A stretch of 64,000 nucleotides of DNA from a virus: positions 106,987 to 170,986 of the IMG/VR virus record IMGVR_UViG_3300023174_003073; one strand, given 5' to 3'. The translations under genes were made by a program, and so were the position numbers. Each line of letters opens with the position of its first letter. Positions within the stretch are counted from its first letter, which is position 1. The notes beneath the pieces are model-generated. The model worked only from the letters and a program-made list of their open reading frames with translations. It ran no database searches and was not told the origin of the DNA. Shown here in pieces: positions 7,736 to 50,221 of this stretch.

Positions 7736-8659
7736 TCAACTTGTTAATTCTACTAATGTAGCCGCAAGACTAATCTCAGGGATTCCAACTAGTGATAAGT
7801 TTGCTAGACCATTACGAATGATAATAATACTAGCATCACGTTTTTCTGCACTACTACCCCACAAATCTAAGTTGTTATACATCCAAACATAGATATCTTC
7901 TAAACGACTTGGATACAAACTCAAATGCTGTAGTAATTGCTGACGACCTTCTAAAATCTTTCCGGCTTTAAACAATTCAGTTGCTTCAAACAATAGACCA
8001 TCTTCACTGTTGCTTGCGTCTACAGGTGGCAATAATTTGCCTGTACTACTATTTACTTGAATCTGATTCAAGCATTTACGTAAGTCTGGATATGTAGCAC
8101 TTACATAGCTATCTAATATCTCTAATTCAAAATCAATGTTTTCAGCCACTAGAACAGTTGCGGCACGTGCTGTAAATTCTGTCTTGTCTGTTTTAGTTAT
8201 TCTAAATTCATGGCATCTGCTTTTAAGTGCAGGGATAATTCTATGTTCATAGTTGCAAGTTAGAATAAATCGTGCAGTCATATGATATGCTTCCATATCA
8301 TTACGCAATGCTGCCTGACCTGCTGGTGTTAGATAATCAGCTTCATCTAACAAAACAACTTTAAACTTACCAAAGGGCATTGTTTGTACAAAGCCAATGA
8401 TTTTGTTTCGTACTACATCAACACTATTTTCACGTGACGCATTGATTTCCAATACATCATATTCTTCTACACCTAATTCTTGTATAAGAACTTTTGCAAG
8501 CGTAGTCTTACCTGTACCGGGCTCACCACTCAATAATAGATGCGGAATGCTTTCATTTGCAATCCAACCAGTAACTTGCTCTTTCTGTCTATCGTCAACA
8601 AAGACATAATCATTTACAGAATGAGGTCTGTAAGCCTCTACCCAGAGTTGGTTTTTCAT
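7736..8659 (-). CDS. gp44: Sliding clamp loader large subunit (gp44)
   Basis: 307 residues (T4 gp44 is 319). An RFC-type AAA+ ATPase that, with gp62, loads the gp45 clamp at primer ends. Visible motifs are the N-terminal WVEAYRP box, Walker A GEPGTGKT 45-52, Walker B LLDEAD 103-108, and the SRC arginine-finger motif at 147-149 (ALKSRCHEF). A C-terminal helical collar follows. The start overlaps the stop of the 110-residue gene by 4 bases (ATGA). It is part of the early block with the GroES-like gene. Confidence 0.92.
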   Translation of the reverse strand: MKNQLWVEAYRPHSVNDYVFVDDRQKEQVTGWIANESIPHLLLSGEPGTGKTTLAKVLIQELGVEEYDVLEINASRENSVDVVRNKIIGFVQTMPFGKFKVVLLDEADYLTPAGQAALRNDMEAYHMTARFILTCNYEHRIIPALKSRCHEFRITKTDKTEFTARAATVLVAENIDFELEILDSYVSATYPDLRKCLNQIQVNSSTGKLLPPVDASNSEDGLLFEATELFKAGKILEGRQQLLQHLSLYPSRLEDIYVWMYNNLDLWGSSAEKRDASIIIIRNGLANLSLVGIPEISLAATLVELTS

Positions 8660-8990: not shown

Positions 8991-9359
8991 TTATCCTTTA
9001 TCACCAAATGTTAAATCATTGACGGGTTCGTCAGATATGAGTAGTATATCATTTTCATCAACTCTACGCAATGTCTTTTCGCCCGTTTCATCTTCAACAT
9101 CGATGCCACGTGTCCATCTTCCATGTGCAATGCAAATCCATTTGCCCACTTTGATTTCATCGTCTTGGAATTGGTCACCCAGTGCATATACTTGTGCCCA
9201 TCGTGGTCTGATACCATTATCTTTACGATTGTCTGATGGGATGATAATACCACCATAACTAATACGTTCATCAAATTCCATATCACTTACAATGATATGT
9301 TTACCAATTGGTTTAAAATTTTCTTTCTTAAACTTATGTGGTTCAAATGCTAACTTCAT
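8991..9359 (-). CDS. GroES/gp31-like co-chaperonin
   Basis: 122 residues (T4 gp31 is 111, GroES 97). The Cpn10 layout is visible: KPIGKHIIVSDM at the N-terminus, a mobile-loop region (SYGGIIIPSDNRKD, about 33-46) that would contact GroEL, a VYALGDQFQDDEIKVGKWICIAHG core, and the closing strand NDILLISDE. T4 gp31 substitutes for GroES in folding the major capsid protein, and a similar role is likely here. The start ATG overlaps the stop of the preceding gene (ATGA type). DnaJ and ClpA homologues elsewhere in the window suggest a phage protein-quality-control set. Confidence 0.75.
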   Translation of the reverse strand: MKLAFEPHKFKKENFKPIGKHIIVSDMEFDERISYGGIIIPSDNRKDNGIRPRWAQVYALGDQFQDDEIKVGKWICIAHGRWTRGIDVEDETGEKTLRRVDENDILLISDEPVNDLTFGDKG

Positions 9360-9734: not shown

Positions 9735-10241
9735 TTATTTTAAGAACTCGTCAATAGACAAGTCATAATGCAAACTATTTATACGGTGTATACCCAGCAA
9801 AAACAGAACATAGCTGGATACACTACTACCACGACCTACTCCCCAAACTACTTTGTTTGCTCTCATAGTGTCAACTAGGTATTTACAATAACGCAATAAT
9901 TGGAACAAATCTCGTTGCTGATATAATATCAATTCTTGCCCAACTCTTTGCAATTCTGCATTAGTTTGACAAAGGTCTAGTACATATTTGGCTATATCTA
10001 ATTGATTGTATTCTTCTGGTATAAACCAATTACGTTGTAGTTGTTTGTCAAACTCTTCCTTCGACAGAGTTTGTTGTTTGTATTTTTTGAATGTGGGTAT
10101 ATTTTCTATCTCTAAATCTTTATCAAAATAGATATCATCAGAGACTAATGCATTTTTGATTTTTATGTTTGGGTCAGATAAAAAGGCACTACATAAGTCC
10201 ATTTCATCTAATATTTGTTGACCGTATATATCAATTTGCAT
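9735..10241 (-). CDS. DnaE-like polymerase fragment, N-terminal palm half
   Basis: 168 residues. The C-terminal 60 match the family-C (DnaE/PolIII alpha) palm entry: DLFQLLRYCKYLVDTMR, then W133-G-V-G-R-G-S-S140, YVLFLLGIHRINSLHYDL and DEFLK. In DnaE this is the GPGRGS...ALGITDLDPLE.DLLFERFLNP block. The N-terminal part resembles the PHP-to-palm linker (DKDLEIENIPTFKKY). The chain stops where DnaE would continue into the catalytic PDxDxDF motif, and the gene at 49628-50221 starts with exactly that motif. The fragment alone lacks all three catalytic aspartates. It heads the early operon with groES and gp44. Confidence 0.7.
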   Translation of the reverse strand: MQIDIYGQQILDEMDLCSAFLSDPNIKIKNALVSDDIYFDKDLEIENIPTFKKYKQQTLSKEEFDKQLQRNWFIPEEYNQLDIAKYVLDLCQTNAELQRVGQELILYQQRDLFQLLRYCKYLVDTMRANKVVWGVGRGSSVSSYVLFLLGIHRINSLHYDLSIDEFLK

Positions 10242-39619: not shown

Positions 39620-40639
39620 TTAAGCGTTAGTTATAGATACAGAGACACCGTTTACTGGGGCACCAAATGTCCATGGAACACTTGAATCTGTAGCAAACTG
39701 AGTACCACCGTTAGATGCTTTGCGAACAACTGTGCAACGATGACCACCTAGTTTCTTAACCCAATATTCCCCACCGGCACTGTCAAAAGCAGTTAAGTCC
39801 ATTTCACCGGCTGCGTTTGCAACACCATCAGTTACTAGTGAACAAGTCATAACACCGTCTGCTGTTTTAACCTTGTAACGGCGTGCACCAACTTGACGAA
39901 TAATATCAGCTACTTGGCGACTTCCACCTGTTACATATGCGTAAGGGATGATAGCATTTTCTTGATTACCGGCACTGTAAGGAATACCGTTGTCTGTAGT
40001 CAATACGATTGTACCTGCTGGTACTGTACCATTTGTTGTACCTGGCTTAGTAAATGTAAATGTTTCATTACCTGTATAACCAGATCCTTTTTCAGTAATA
40101 GTTACTGTAGATTCTTTAACACGGAATGCAATGTCAACTAAGAATGTTGACGCTGTACCTGATCCTGCAATTTTAGTTAAAGTAATACCAACTGTATCTT
40201 TTGGAATGTCTGCAAGTGCTAGAGCATCACCCCGAGCCGCACCGGTTGCTATTACTGAGAACACAGCATTAGCACCTGACAAGTCAGTAACTTTAGCAAT
40301 CATTCCTGGTACACTTGCCACACCAAATGTGTCGCCAACTGCTAAGTTAGTTTTGCCTGCACCAGTTCCTACGCTTTCAACTTCAAATTGTGCAGTGTAA
40401 GTTGCTTGTACACCGCCTGGAATTGTCGGAGCTGGCAGTGCTGTTAGTGCTGTCAACACTTGAACGTTACTGTTGCCTTGGAATGAACCAAGTGTTGACC
40501 AGTTGATACTAGCAATGCCTTCGCCACCAATTCTGTCATCACTATAATTTTGACTGTTTGATTGATTACCAGTAGTCTGGTCACCGCCGGTACCAATGTT
40601 ACGGTTACCAAAATATTTTTTGTTTAGATTAGCTGCCAT
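39620..40639 (-). CDS. Virion protein, tandem paralogue B (339 aa)
   Basis: 339 residues, paralogue of the gene at 38391-39608: the first 40 and last 130 residues align by eye, the middle differs in length and sequence. This pattern suggests a decoration protein in which the exposed centre diversified after duplication. The mRNA has an unusual approximately 75-base leader with two stem-loops before AAGGAAAA and the ATG, from the late promoter at 40720-40728. Confidence 0.7.
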   Translation of the reverse strand: MAANLNKKYFGNRNIGTGGDQTTGNQSNSQNYSDDRIGGEGIASINWSTLGSFQGNSNVQVLTALTALPAPTIPGGVQATYTAQFEVESVGTGAGKTNLAVGDTFGVASVPGMIAKVTDLSGANAVFSVIATGAARGDALALADIPKDTVGITLTKIAGSGTASTFLVDIAFRVKESTVTITEKGSGYTGNETFTFTKPGTTNGTVPAGTIVLTTDNGIPYSAGNQENAIIPYAYVTGGSRQVADIIRQVGARRYKVKTADGVMTCSLVTDGVANAAGEMDLTAFDSAGGEYWVKKLGGHRCTVVRKASNGGTQFATDSSVPWTFGAPVNGVSVSITNA

Positions 40640-40674
40640 TTTATTTTTCCTTTATATTATGGGCGTTCTAGGCC

Positions 40675-40695
40675 TACGCAGTGGCTTACTGCGTA
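40675..40695 (-). promoter_or_regulatory. Stem-loop in the leader of paralogue B
   Basis: A perfect 8-bp stem (TACGCAGT/ACTGCGTA, 5-base loop) lies in the 5' untranslated region, with a smaller CTCT/AGAG hairpin nearer the start point at about 40700-40713. It has no T run after it, so it is more likely an mRNA-stabilising or regulatory element than a terminator. Confidence 0.55.
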
Positions 40696-40719
40696 AACTC
40701 TCATTCAAGAGCGAACATT

Positions 40720-45495: not shown

Positions 45496-45504
45496 GTATT
45501 TATC
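45496..45504 (-). promoter_or_regulatory. Late promoter (GATAAATAC)
   Basis: Minus-strand GATAAATAC at the end of the helicase gene, 21 bases before the ATG at 45475. Confidence 0.7.
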
Positions 45505-46915
45505 AATTTTTGAGATTGTTAAGTAGTGCTTTTAATTTGCTACCCTGCACGTCTGCAACTACCCGTTTAGTTTCTTCAGGAATATAGATATTTTCCCCAA
45601 CCACAGTTGACTGGGGCTTTAATTGATTCATAATCTCGTTAGGACTAGGGGCAGGACGATACTTCATTTGCTGATCTCCATGACCCTCAGGATCCTCGTC
45701 TGTAATTCTCATGGTTTCTACGTTATATTCCAAGTCAATTTTTTGACCTACACCAGTCGAACTACGACTTTTCATACACTGAATCTGATACTTACCGCGT
45801 TCACGCATACTACGACTTGTAAAGATACCAAATACGTTATCTGCTGTATTAATCTTACTGATACCACCTGCAATATGACTATGGTCAAACTCAATTTCTT
45901 CAACTGCACTACGATTCAACTGACTTGCAGTAACCATTAATACACCTAATTCTTTGGATAGGTTACGCAATTCTTCTGACACATACTTGTCTTTAATAAA
46001 CTGGTCGTTAGGATTTACTTTAACAGACACGGGCATTACTAGATCCAGATAGTCAATCATCACAAAGTCAACTTTGATACCTGTTTGTATCTGTACTTCT
46101 TTCAAGTAACTACGAATATCGTTAACATTGCTTTGTGCGGGCAATCCTTTAACACGATAGTCACCTGATTTCTTACCTGCTAATTTAACTTTAAGTTCAG
46201 TATTATCAATATCTTTACGAATGTCTCTGGTACTCATCATAGTCAACATCGCATCAGTTCTAAGTGAAGTCAATTCTTCTGAGAGTTCCAATGAGATATA
46301 AACGCCACTCAATCCCATACCTAACCAATTCAGTGCAATGTTCATCATCACCAATGATTTACCTGAACCTGAACCACCTGCAAAGATATTCAATTCACCT
46401 CGACTAAAGCCACCATACAACAACCTATCAAGTTGCGGCCAGCCTGTGCTTTGTTGTCCACCTGCATTAAAGTATTTGTGCAATCGTCCTTTAGGGTCAG
46501 CAAAGTAATCTGTACCCATATCTCGTTGTAAACTAATCTGCACTGCTTCTTTGATTAGTTTCTCGACGGGACCAAAGTCACCCTTCTCTAACAAATCGGC
46601 TGCTTTGAGGATTGCTCGTTCTAATTCTTGTCTTTTAGTAAATGATTCAAATTCTTCTAAGAACCATTCAGTATGTTTATCACCGAAATCTTCAACCATA
46701 TCAAGTTGAACACCTGTGGTCGCTACAATTTGTTTACTATCGGGTAGTAAACTATACTTCTCACTATATTCTATCATAAACTCTGCAACAGGTCTTAAAG
46801 ACTTGTCAAAGTTCTGAGCATTCATAATATTCATTACCCTTGTATACAATTCTGCATTTGTCAGAATCATTTGTAAAAAGAGTTTTTGAATCTCTACGTT
46901 ATATTCCTTTTGCAA
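45503..46915 (-). CDS. gp41: Replicative DNA helicase (gp41/DnaB-type)
   Basis: 470 residues (T4 gp41 is 475). An N-terminal helical hairpin domain (1-140) is followed by a RecA-like motor: LDRLLYGGFSRGELNIFAG, Walker A GGSGSGKS 180-187, GVYISLELSEE, Walker B VDFVMIDYLDLVM, and the VTASQLNRSAVEE and AGGISKINTADNV blocks. It unwinds DNA 5' to 3' at the fork and couples to the gp61 primase encoded two genes upstream. A one-base gap separates it from the cupin gene. Confidence 0.94.
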   Translation of the reverse strand: MQKEYNVEIQKLFLQMILTNAELYTRVMNIMNAQNFDKSLRPVAEFMIEYSEKYSLLPDSKQIVATTGVQLDMVEDFGDKHTEWFLEEFESFTKRQELERAILKAADLLEKGDFGPVEKLIKEAVQISLQRDMGTDYFADPKGRLHKYFNAGGQQSTGWPQLDRLLYGGFSRGELNIFAGGSGSGKSLVMMNIALNWLGMGLSGVYISLELSEELTSLRTDAMLTMMSTRDIRKDIDNTELKVKLAGKKSGDYRVKGLPAQSNVNDIRSYLKEVQIQTGIKVDFVMIDYLDLVMPVSVKVNPNDQFIKDKYVSEELRNLSKELGVLMVTASQLNRSAVEEIEFDHSHIAGGISKINTADNVFGIFTSRSMRERGKYQIQCMKSRSSTGVGQKIDLEYNVETMRITDEDPEGHGDQQMKYRPAPSPNEIMNQLKPQSTVVGENIYIPEETKRVVADVQGSKLKALLNNLKN

Positions 46916-46916
46916 T

Positions 46917-47417
46917 TCAATTTCCTTTGTTTATTGATGTGTCATATTGACCATCAATCAAAATATATAACATACGACATACATTTGATGACCTATTAGC
47001 CCATGCATGGTTAGTACCTCGTTGTATTACAACTGCCCCTTTTTGTAAATCAACTTCTGAATCATCTAATACTAATGTAATCTCTCCTTCCATCACGATA
47101 CTATAATCAATTGATTCAGTGACATGCATTAAGGGATGTGGTTTTAAAAATCTAAATTCTGTAGTCTCAGGTGGAATATCAGCAAATCTAATTCTTGTAC
47201 CATTTTTTGGAGGTTCAAATTTTAATGGGCTGTTTGTAGGATCAATCCTATTATCAATTATTGCTGGCATTTCTGTAGTATTCCATACTTCGTGTAATAC
47301 AAGACCTGGAATAATATCTAAATCAAAAACATTAGGCAAAGTTCCATTTGAAGTTATTATTGATTTACCCTCATTGTTGTGACCTGTAACCACACGATGA
47401 ATCTTGGGATAAGTCAT
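46917..47417 (-). CDS. Cupin-domain protein
   Basis: 166 residues. A cupin_2 barrel at about 85-160: HPLMHVTESIDYSIVMEGEI, LVLDDSEVDLQKGAVVIQRG, TNHAWANRSSNVCRMLYILI. It resembles common bacterial cupins with the SIDYxIVxEGE and RGTNHAWxNR blocks. The first cupin motif has no HxH pair, so metal binding and catalysis are uncertain; a ligand-binding role is possible. It is inserted between primase and helicase with 4-base and 1-base junctions, so it is expressed with the replisome. Unusual for a T4-like replication operon. Confidence 0.75.
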   Translation of the reverse strand: MTYPKIHRVVTGHNNEGKSIITSNGTLPNVFDLDIIPGLVLHEVWNTTEMPAIIDNRIDPTNSPLKFEPPKNGTRIRFADIPPETTEFRFLKPHPLMHVTESIDYSIVMEGEITLVLDDSEVDLQKGAVVIQRGTNHAWANRSSNVCRMLYILIDGQYDTSINKGN

Positions 47418-48391
47418 TCTATGGCCTTTAATAATTTACGCTTTTGCATTTCTATTTTAATTTTACTCATTGTAGCATTTTCTAATATACTTAGTAAAGT
47501 AGGCAATCTACCATATTTTACCACTGCATCATTCACATCTTTAACTGAGCTATCCCAATCAGGTAAACTAACACTATACCCAAACTCTAATGCTTTGTCA
47601 CATATCTCCAGACCAGTCGCATCACGATCGGGTACAACGATTATTTTCTTATTCAATTGTGCTAGCAATTGTGCTTGTTCTGTTGATATTGTATTATGTG
47701 TTAAAGCACAACCATGAATGCTCAATGCATCAAAAATACCTTCAACTACGATACATGCTTGCCATTCTGGTTTCTGAAAATCATATCCAAATACATATCC
47801 TGCTTCTTGGTCATTGATATACTTAGGAATTCTGTTATCTAAAAATCTGCTCGTATGACCTACAGTTTTTCCCTTATATGTATAGGGGATAACAATTCGA
47901 TTTGATTGTCTGCCCTTATCATTGGGTGTGACTACAAAGGGTAATATTGTTTTATCAATCTTTCTGTTTTGTAGATATTGTAAGAATACACTATGATTAG
48001 GATTATTGCTATCTAACAATTCACCGTCAGGTAATTCTCTTGCTTTAAACGAAATTGTTTCACGAACCTTTTTGGTATATGTAAAATCTAAAAAGTCTTT
48101 GTTGCGTAAACTTTCAAGACTCCAAAGTTGAATCTGTTCTATGTCAACACCACACCACAATAAGAATTGTTTTGCTCTTTCAGAAATAACTCTTCCCAAA
48201 GTAAAACTGCAACTATAGCTACAGTTAAAGCAATGGTATACCCAGTTAGTTTGTCCATCAAACTTAATACCACCTCTGAATCTATCATCAGGCCTATGCC
48301 CACGATGGGAACAACAAATTGCGTTGAAACTAGTCCAACCACCACTTGTTTGTTTCTTACGACCGGGTATTATTGAGAGTATATCAAACAT
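47414..48391 (-). CDS. gp61: DNA primase (gp61-type)
   Basis: 325 residues (T4 gp61 is 342). An N-terminal zinc ribbon with Cys26, Cys27, His29 and Cys54, Cys57 (CCSHRGHRP ... YHCFNCSYSC) precedes a TOPRIM-type catalytic region (CIVVEGIFDALS, VVPDRDATGLEI). It makes RNA primers at the fork with gp41. The early promoter -10 ends 7 bases before the ATG, with no Shine-Dalgarno, so it is predicted leaderless. It heads the primase-cupin-helicase operon. Confidence 0.92.
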   Translation of the reverse strand: MFDILSIIPGRKKQTSGGWTSFNAICCSHRGHRPDDRFRGGIKFDGQTNWVYHCFNCSYSCSFTLGRVISERAKQFLLWCGVDIEQIQLWSLESLRNKDFLDFTYTKKVRETISFKARELPDGELLDSNNPNHSVFLQYLQNRKIDKTILPFVVTPNDKGRQSNRIVIPYTYKGKTVGHTSRFLDNRIPKYINDQEAGYVFGYDFQKPEWQACIVVEGIFDALSIHGCALTHNTISTEQAQLLAQLNKKIIVVPDRDATGLEICDKALEFGYSVSLPDWDSSVKDVNDAVVKYGRLPTLLSILENATMSKIKIEMQKRKLLKAIE

Positions 48392-49219: not shown

Positions 49220-49248
49220 AAATTTAAATACATTGGGCAACCAAATAT

Positions 49249-49256
49249 GATAAATA
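49249..49256 (+). promoter_or_regulatory. Late promoter (GATAAATA), plus strand
   Basis: Plus-strand GATAAATA 20 bases before the ATG at 49277. It lies inside a spurious ATGATAAATAAA reading start, the same artefact as at 62835. Confidence 0.6.
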
Positions 49257-49276
49257 AATCCGAGAACACTAAAATA

Positions 49277-49657
49277 ATGATTCAAAACGAATTCTTCAAC
49301 AAACTAACTAAAAATCACCCCTTCATAACCATTTGTTCCTACGCAGGACAAGATTACGTTGGAATAGTACAAAATCGTGATGAAATAGTCACAACTATCT
49401 ATGATTACGGGGCGATAGTTGATAACATTCTTAGGGAAAAGTTCTTAGAATTAGGTGATACATGGTGGTGGGAAAGTAATCGATTAGTACCCATCAATAT
49501 GTTCTTAAAAGAAGAATGGATCATGTTCAAACCCTATCTTAGAACATTCAATAACAAAAGTCTCACTGTAGTTCATGGCCCGATATGCAGTATATTAGAA
49601 CTGGCCAAAAGAAAATCAAAAAGAAAATCAATTACTCTCGTTAAGAGAATGTCCTAA
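49277..49657 (+). CDS. Conserved hypothetical protein (126 aa)
   Basis: 126 residues from the ATG at 49277; the longer frame from 49247 starts within the late promoter. A small alpha/beta protein with HPFITICSYAGQDYVGIVQN, ELGDTWWWESNRLVPINMFL and a very basic C-terminus (ELAKRKSKRKSITLVKRMS). The 3' end overlaps the convergent DnaE-like gene by 30 bases. Basic tail and late promoter fit a nucleic-acid-linked late factor, but function is unknown. Confidence 0.6.
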   Translation: MIQNEFFNKLTKNHPFITICSYAGQDYVGIVQNRDEIVTTIYDYGAIVDNILREKFLELGDTWWWESNRLVPINMFLKEEWIMFKPYLRTFNNKSLTVVHGPICSILELAKRKSKRKSITLVKRMS

Positions 49658-50221
49658 TTCTTCTAATAAGTTCATATGAACAACTACCAAGTGTGCGTAG
49701 GCAATAGCATGACTTTTCTTAAAGCTATACCCATCAATATTCTTCTCCCACACTGTCTCCGCAACTTCTTTCCAAGATAATCCAATTAAATGCTTTTTAG
49801 CAGGTCGAATGATTGCTAGCATCATAGCAAGTCTCGGTATGCTATTGATAGGTTCTAACATCTTTTGCATACTATAATAATGATTGCTCAAGTGAATTAA
49901 TTGTTCCACGAATGTTTTGTCATTTAGTTTATCCCAATTAGGTTCACGCATCAATTCAATTAGATGCTGTTCGTCACGTACTTTATCATATACATGAACA
50001 TTCAAAAAGTCTAGTTTGAGATACCCTCGTTGGTCTGCTTCACTATAGTCTATATTAGCCATGTCAAGTAATGCATCGTATGGAACTTCTGTTACATAGA
50101 TACCTGTTGCATGTTTACGAATAGGGTTTGCTCTACGCATTGCCGCAGGAACATGAGATATATATTGTAAAATATTATCTCTGTTCCCGAAGTCAATATC
50201 AATATCAGACTGAAACTTCAT
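49628..50221 (-). CDS. DnaE-like polymerase fragment, catalytic palm half
   Basis: 197 residues that read like a condensed family-C polymerase. It opens with DIDIDFGNRDNI (Asp6, Asp8), equivalent to the E. coli DnaE PDFDVDF motif; then KHATGIYVTEVPYDAL (DnaE HAAGVVI), LKLDFLN (Asp71, equivalent to Asp555 in KFDFLG), LAMMLAIIRPAKKHLIG (IALVALYRPGP) and YSFKKSHAIAYAHLVV (GFNKSHAxAYxxxxY). All three catalytic aspartates are apparently present, but spacing between motifs is roughly half that of DnaE. The preceding palm segment is encoded separately at 9735-10241. Early operon; overlaps the sugar reductase gene by 17 bases. Confidence 0.72.
   Translation of the reverse strand: MKFQSDIDIDFGNRDNILQYISHVPAAMRRANPIRKHATGIYVTEVPYDALLDMANIDYSEADQRGYLKLDFLNVHVYDKVRDEQHLIELMREPNWDKLNDKTFVEQLIHLSNHYYSMQKMLEPINSIPRLAMMLAIIRPAKKHLIGLSWKEVAETVWEKNIDGYSFKKSHAIAYAHLVVVHMNLLEELGHSLNESN

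What the first reader, a model, noticed from the sequence alone, without database searches (positions are those of the whole stretch)
49628..50221. A 197-residue protein apparently retaining all three catalytic aspartates of a DnaE-type polymerase
Seen: DIDIDF (Asp6, Asp8), KLDFL (Asp71), RPAKKHLIG and SFKKSHAIAY occur in the same order as the PDFDVDF, KFDFLG, RPGP and GFNKSHA motifs of DnaE. Known: E. coli DnaE uses Asp401, Asp403 and Asp555. The fragment is far smaller than any family-C polymerase, with the gaps between motifs halved. It may be a minimal polymerase, a regulatory decoy or a degenerate relic under selection.
Basis: partly seen in the sequence, partly recalled or inferred. Interest (0 to 1): 0.85.

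Follow-up and report, generated by a model that had tools for sequence, protein, structure and literature searches.

The report
Half of a split phage DNA polymerase
The small protein is one half of a miniature version of the bacterial replication polymerase whose catalytic core is divided between two genes 40 kb apart; this two-gene arrangement of giant phages was described in 2021 but I found no laboratory test of it.

Summary
In detail: a 197-residue ORF (49628-50221, minus strand) carries the family-C polymerase motifs in order, and its three aspartates (D6, D8, D71 = E. coli DnaE D401, D403, D555) are invariant in 168 sequences. But it is not a complete minimal polymerase. It lacks the upstream palm piece with the triphosphate-binding GRGS motif. 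That piece is a separate 168-residue gene at 9735-10241. AlphaFold models of the two proteins match adjacent, non-overlapping parts of E. coli DnaE (397-791 and 278-393). Both halves occur in 12 of 12 phage records tested (this one and 11 named phages), always as separate genes, beside a family-B polymerase and without a PHP domain. Both are under purifying selection; no intein, fusion or thumb was seen. Best reading: two chains assemble in trans into a thumbless family-C nucleotidyltransferase that assists the PolB replicase. The arrangement was already described by Iyer et al. 2021 (PMC7824862), so this is a new member of a known kind. Added here: residue conservation, selection by region, structural mapping of the split and of the lost domains, and a second phage lineage (Cellulophaga/Tenacibaculum) whose full-size Pol III alpha is broken at the same point, with no PolA or PolB found in phiST.

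The parts
49628..50221 (-). C-half of the split family-C polymerase (197 aa): metal-binding strand, HATG, KLDFL, RPAK and FKKSH motifs; palm C-part plus shortened fingers
   Evidence: phrog_11778 E=1e-54; invariant residues in 168 homologues; model matches E. coli DnaE 397-791 and PolC 968-1307
9735..10241 (-). N-half of the split polymerase (168 aa): palm N-part with the GRGSS triphosphate-binding motif; first ~68 residues have no assigned counterpart
   Evidence: PF07733 34.4 bits over cut-off 23.9; phrog_11127 E=3e-41; PDB DnaE profile match E=9.8e-5; model matches E. coli DnaE 278-393
50189..50206 (-). DIDIDF motif (D6, D8, D10 = DnaE D401, D403, D405)
   Evidence: invariant in 168 sequences; numbering
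50102..50113 (-). HATG motif (DnaE HAGG, 512-515)
   Evidence: H37 and G40 invariant; hhalign to DnaE 508-562
50003..50017 (-). KLDFL motif (D71 = DnaE D555)
   Evidence: K69 and D71 invariant; hhalign
49796..49807 (-). RPAK motif (DnaE RPGP, 639)
   Evidence: R139, P140, K142 invariant
49697..49723 (-). FKKSHAIAY motif (DnaE FNKSHSAAY, around 758)
   Evidence: H171 and Y175 invariant, K168 164 of 168
9822..9836 (-). GRGSS motif of the N-half (DnaE GPGRGS, 359-364)
   Evidence: G136 R137 G138 S139 invariant in 152 sequences
49247..49657 (+). Convergent small gene overlapping the 3' end of the C-half; phrog_11637, unknown function; the same arrangement beside the C-half in the annotated genomes read
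   Evidence: neighbouring tables
7736..8659 (-). Context: gp44-like clamp loader near the N-half, with a GroES-like gene (8991-9359) between
   Evidence: Pfam AAA and DNA_pol3_delta2, Cpn10; same order in RaK2, 121Q, CBB
45503..48391 (-). Context: gp41-like helicase (45503-46915) and gp61-like primase (47414-48391) near the C-half
   Evidence: ORFs; gp61 and gp41 annotated beside the C-half in RaK2

Best explanation
The protein is the C-terminal half of a two-chain, minimal family-C (DnaE-type) nucleotidyltransferase. The N-half (9735-10241) supplies the GRGS motif that in family-C enzymes holds the incoming triphosphate. The C-half supplies the three aspartates that hold the two metal ions and the RPxK and KSH residues of the fingers. 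The chains assemble without splicing into one palm (inferred). Thumb, PHP exonuclease domain, one fingers insert and everything after the KSH helix are missing (shown), so it should be a distributive enzyme for short synthesis or end addition that works beside the phage's PolB replicase, for example in gap filling, repair or lesion bypass (inferred). Shown: homology, complementarity, co-occurrence, conservation, purifying selection. Inferred: physical assembly, polymerase activity, cellular role.
For: The models match adjacent, non-overlapping DnaE segments: N-half 278-393, C-half 397-791 of E. coli; 823-964 and 967/968-1307/1312 of PolC. Catalytic residues of both halves are invariant in 168 and 152 sequences. 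dN/dS medians are 0.12 for the C-half and 0.13 for the GRGS part of the N-half. Both halves are present once each in 12 of 12 phage records and in 9 of the 10 IMG/VR records tested of 209 kb or more. No fusion in 167 C- and 151 N-halves. PolB in 12 of 12 and PHP in 0 of 12. Same break, in adjacent genes, in the Pol III alpha of Cellulophaga phiST and Tenacibaculum Larrie, with no PolA or PolB found in phiST, so a two-chain palm is plausible as a working enzyme. Same conclusion in PMC7824862.
Against: No evidence of physical contact; a two-chain model could not be run. C-half similarity to cellular DnaE is weak by sequence alone (no PDB hit; hhalign probability 25% against E. coli DnaE alone). 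Foldseek E-values are modest (3e-3 at best for the C-half, 0.8 for the N-half), and Z of 8-10 is only moderate. One 289-kb IMG/VR record has an N-half but no C-half found, though it may be incomplete. Loss of the thumb could abolish templated synthesis.
Confidence: 0.75

Rival explanations
1. The two chains assemble, but the product is a non-templated nucleotidyltransferase (adding nucleotides to DNA ends, RNA or protein), not a DNA polymerase. The pol-beta fold commonly does this, and the thumb that grips the duplex is gone.
For: Thumb spacing removed (109 to 29 residues); palm residues for metal and triphosphate kept.
Against: The fingers motifs RPxK and KSH, specific to family C, are invariant, and the genes sit among replication genes.
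Confidence: 0.25
2. The C-half acts alone as a regulatory decoy or inhibitor of the host Pol III or of its accessory proteins.
For: It resembles part of the host DnaE palm and fingers.
Against: A decoy need not keep all metal ligands and fingers residues in 168 of 168 sequences. The segment matched (DnaE up to 791) stops before the clamp-, tau- and ssDNA-binding regions. A decoy gives no reason for the matching N-half in the same genomes.
Confidence: 0.05
3. Both genes are relics of a broken DnaE gene that keep a fold but no catalysis.
For: Thumb, PHP and C-terminal domains are lost.
Against: Strong purifying selection (dN/dS 0.06-0.08 between the window's C-half and its closest relatives), invariant active-site residues, two conserved genomic sites across very diverse phages.
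Confidence: 0.04
4. The two genes are joined after transcription or translation (split intein or trans-splicing RNA), as in cyanobacterial DnaE.
For: Cyanobacterial DnaE is a known split-intein case (general knowledge).
Against: Neither protein has residues beyond the DnaE-like ends: all N-half matches end at residue 168 or nearby and the C-half frame has only 7 codons before its ATG. No intron family in the window.
Confidence: 0.02

Closest known systems
Split minimal DNA polymerase III alpha of group 2.2 jumbo phages (Iyer et al. 2021, PMC7824862; phrog_11127 + phrog_11778)
   Same: Two separate, distantly located genes for NTP-binding and metal/template-binding parts; accompanied by PolB; no other Pol III domains. 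This window is a member.
   Different: No essential difference; this is an uncultured relative. One relative outside the jumbo range (Slicko01, 141 kb) also has both halves.
Bacterial DnaE / PolC (family-C replicative polymerases)
   Same: GRGS, DxD, HAGG, KxDFL, RPG and KSH motifs in order; palm and part of fingers by structure.
   Different: About 365 residues in two chains instead of about 1,160 in one; no PHP domain, thumb, clamp-binding, OB or tau-binding part.
Two-gene Pol III alpha of Cellulophaga phiST / Tenacibaculum Larrie (phrog_13169 + phrog_12219)
   Same: Chain broken at the same point, between ...FERFLN and PDIDxDF.
   Different: Genes are adjacent; PHP, fingers and HHH domains present; extra residues at the junction; no PolA or PolB found in phiST; relative MA9V-3 is unsplit.
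Cyanobacterial split-intein DnaE
   Same: DnaE encoded by two distant genes.
   Different: Different break point and joined by a split intein (general knowledge); no intein here.

Membership tests
Split minimal Pol III alpha of group 2.2 jumbo phages | N-terminal NTP-binding part as a separate gene | tested here: met
   9735-10241; PF07733 and phrog_11127
Split minimal Pol III alpha of group 2.2 jumbo phages | C-terminal metal/template-binding part as a separate, distant gene | tested here: met
   49628-50221, about 40 kb away
Split minimal Pol III alpha of group 2.2 jumbo phages | Family-B polymerase in the same genome | tested here: met
   PF00136 in a 926-aa frame at about G000:C1:89.5-90.8 kb
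Split minimal Pol III alpha of group 2.2 jumbo phages | The halves form one active enzyme | not testable with these tools
   needs a two-chain model or biochemistry
Family-C DNA polymerase (DnaE/PolC) | Catalytic Asp triad in a pol-beta-type palm | tested here: met
   D6, D8, D71 invariant; model matches DnaE and PolC
Family-C DNA polymerase (DnaE/PolC) | GRGS motif in the palm | tested here: met
   only in the partner chain: G136-S139 invariant
Family-C DNA polymerase (DnaE/PolC) | PHP domain | tested here: not met
   PF02811 absent from 12 of 12 records, present in all 14 controls
Family-C DNA polymerase (DnaE/PolC) | Thumb between DxD and HAGG | tested here: not met
   29 residues instead of 109
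Family-C DNA polymerase (DnaE/PolC) | Clamp-binding and OB regions after the fingers | tested here: not met
   C-half ends at the equivalent of E. coli residue 791
Split-intein DnaE | Intein halves at the junction | tested here: not met
   no residues beyond the DnaE-like ends

The most novel reading that the evidence does not exclude
The pair forms an active, thumbless, two-chain DNA polymerase of about 365 residues, which would be the smallest family-C polymerase known to me and a working second polymerase in PolB phages; and the palm of family-C enzymes has been cut at the same junction at least twice (jumbo phages; Cellulophaga/Tenacibaculum phages), so that it is a natural two-piece enzyme.
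Probability: 0.45. Interest if true: 0.75.

Novelty: new member of a known kind. Interest (0 to 1): 0.5.

Why it matters
If the two chains form an active enzyme, it would show how little of a Pol III core suffices for nucleotidyl transfer, give a small reconstitutable model of the bacterial replicase palm, and explain why PolB-replicating giant phages keep a bacterial-type polymerase core. Iyer et al. also propose it as a model of an ancestral polymerase; that was not tested here. Practically, annotation of these genes as 'hypothetical' or 'truncated' hides the pairing.

Tried and rejected
Hidden N-terminal extension of the C-half: rejected, the frame stops 7 codons upstream of the ATG. Natural one-chain version of the mini-enzyme: none among 167 C- and 151 N-half frames, longest stop-to-stop 236 and 248 codons, so the joined enzyme could not be folded. 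Intein or intron joining: no evidence. Plasmid carriers: no match. C-half against PDB sequences, alone or as a profile: no DnaE hit; only fold comparison showed it. The first ~68 residues of the N-half were not covered by the fold matches, so nothing is claimed about their fold. A tree to decide whether the split enzyme is derived or ancestral was not attempted: too few alignable positions.

Full report
What is there. The ORF at 49628-50221 (minus) encodes 197 residues. No Pfam family matches above its cut-off, but it is a clear member of phrog_11778 'DNA polymerase' (E=1e-54) and matches full-size DnaE-type phrogs more weakly. tblastn finds full-length relatives at 34-45% identity in 63 phage records, mostly jumbo phages of the RaK2, 121Q, PA5oct and Atu_ph07 kinds, and several hundred in IMG/VR. 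None were found on plasmids. The window is part of a 171-kb IMG/VR virus record.

The motifs. E. coli DnaE has PDFDVDF at 400-406, KHAGG around 511, D555, RPGP at 639 and KSH at 758. The ORF has SDIDIDF, KHATG, KLDFL, RPAK and KKSH in the same order. D6, D8, D10, H37, G40, K69, D71, R139, P140, K142, H171 and Y175 are identical in all 168 sequences compared.

The missing piece. In DnaE the palm begins before the aspartates, with the GRGS motif. This ORF has no room for it: its frame opens only 7 codons before the ATG. The missing piece is in the same window: the 168-residue ORF at 9735-10241 (minus) reads ...VWGVGRGSSVSSYVLFLLGIHRINSLHYDLSIDEFLK and stops. It matches PF07733 DNA_pol3_alpha above the curated cut-off (34.4 against 23.9 bits), phrog_11127 'DNA polymerase', and DnaE structures by profile (2hpi 380-454, E=9.8e-5; E. 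coli 320-392; hhalign E=1.3e-6). Its relatives end at the same point.

Structure. AlphaFold models built with 69 and 74 relatives are confident (mean pLDDT 91.4 and 90.6). Aligned to solved structures, the C-half covers E. coli DnaE 397-791, Taq DnaE 458-849 and PolC 968-1307 (Z 8.0, 9.3, 10.1; next unrelated chain 3.1). Residues 69-168 of the N-half cover E. coli DnaE 278-393 and PolC 823-964 (Z 8.8 and 10.3; next unrelated 2.1). The two proteins therefore map to adjacent, non-overlapping segments, broken just before the metal-binding strand. Foldseek's own E-values are modest, so the case rests on motifs, profiles and fold together. Spacing shows the losses: DxD-to-HAGG 109 to 29 residues (thumb), RPG-to-KSH 119 to 30 (fingers insert); nothing remains after the KSH helix.

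Distribution. Profile searches find each half exactly once in 12 of 12 phage records (this one and eleven named phages, including the 141-kb Slicko01 and RAS14, where tblastn with one half had missed the partner). All twelve also have PolB, no other PF07733 protein above the cut-off, and no PHP domain, although all 14 control genomes do. Of ten IMG/VR records of 209 kb or more, nine have both halves; the tenth has only the N-half found and may be incomplete. In the tblastn lists, 58 of the 60 records with an N-half are among the 60 C-half records shown. The halves are 11 to more than 180 kb apart and never fused. Neighbours are conserved: the N-half lies by a GroES-like gene and the gp44 clamp loader; the C-half by gp61/gp41 and a convergent small gene.

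Selection. Median dN/dS is 0.12 for the C-half (0.09-0.15 by region). In the N-half it is 0.13 for the GRGS region, 0.21 for residues 71-125 and 0.39 for residues 1-70. The catalytic parts of both are constrained; the head of the N-half is freer.

A second split. The viral-structure search led to Cellulophaga phage phiST, where Pol III alpha is two adjacent genes. The first has PHP and PF07733 up to position 98; the second has PF07733 from position 100, fingers and HHH. The break is again between FERFLN and LPDIDTDF, with about 55 extra residues on one side and 18 on the other. Tenacibaculum phage Larrie has the same; the relative MA9V-3 is one chain. No PolA or PolB was found in phiST, so this two-chain form is probably its replicase. 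I take this as support that a two-chain palm can work, and as a sign that this junction is a recurrent break point; whether the two splits are independent was not tested by a tree.

Mechanism. The N-half binds the triphosphate, the C-half binds the metals and template side; together they would rebuild one palm (inferred). Without thumb, PHP or clamp-binding parts the enzyme should be distributive, so I favour short synthesis in repair or bypass beside PolB. A non-templated nucleotidyltransferase is the strongest rival. Decoy and relic readings fit poorly with invariant active-site residues in both genes.

Known or new. Iyer et al. [quoted passage not shown] Earlier papers noted the N-half as a truncated alpha subunit (CBB, PMC5259590) and as gp316 of Atu_ph07 (PMC6102473). 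No experimental work was found in the papers searched. This window is a new member of that known kind.

Noticed in passing
window 40637-40712 (-): freshwater-2 RNA (RF02980), a cis-regulatory RNA family, 50.7 bits against a gathering score of 49.9, just upstream of ORF 39620-40639.
   Followed up: no
window 49247-49657 (+): Small convergent gene (phrog_11637, unknown function) overlapping the 3' end of the C-half; an opposite-strand small gene lies beside the C-half in the annotated genomes read. Candidate third partner.
   Followed up: partly
L148 6001-6576 (Atu_ph07 NC_042013 58304-58879): GenBank's C-half CDS starts 27 codons late and so drops the DIDIDF motif.
   Followed up: yes
Atu_ph07, PA5oct, Slicko01 and two IMG/VR records (G006, G013): PolB (gp43-like) itself lies in two separate open frames.
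   Followed up: no
L168 (Alishewanella phage Slicko01, 141 kb): A phage below jumbo size that carries both halves, about 11 kb apart.
   Followed up: partly
L426 33697-37297 (Cellulophaga phiST) and L429 951-4531 (Larrie): Full-size Pol III alpha in two adjacent genes broken at the same palm junction, with extra residues at the junction of unknown origin.
   Followed up: partly
window 9735-10241, residues 1-70 of the N-half: Fast-evolving head (dN/dS 0.39) not covered by the fold matches.
   Followed up: no
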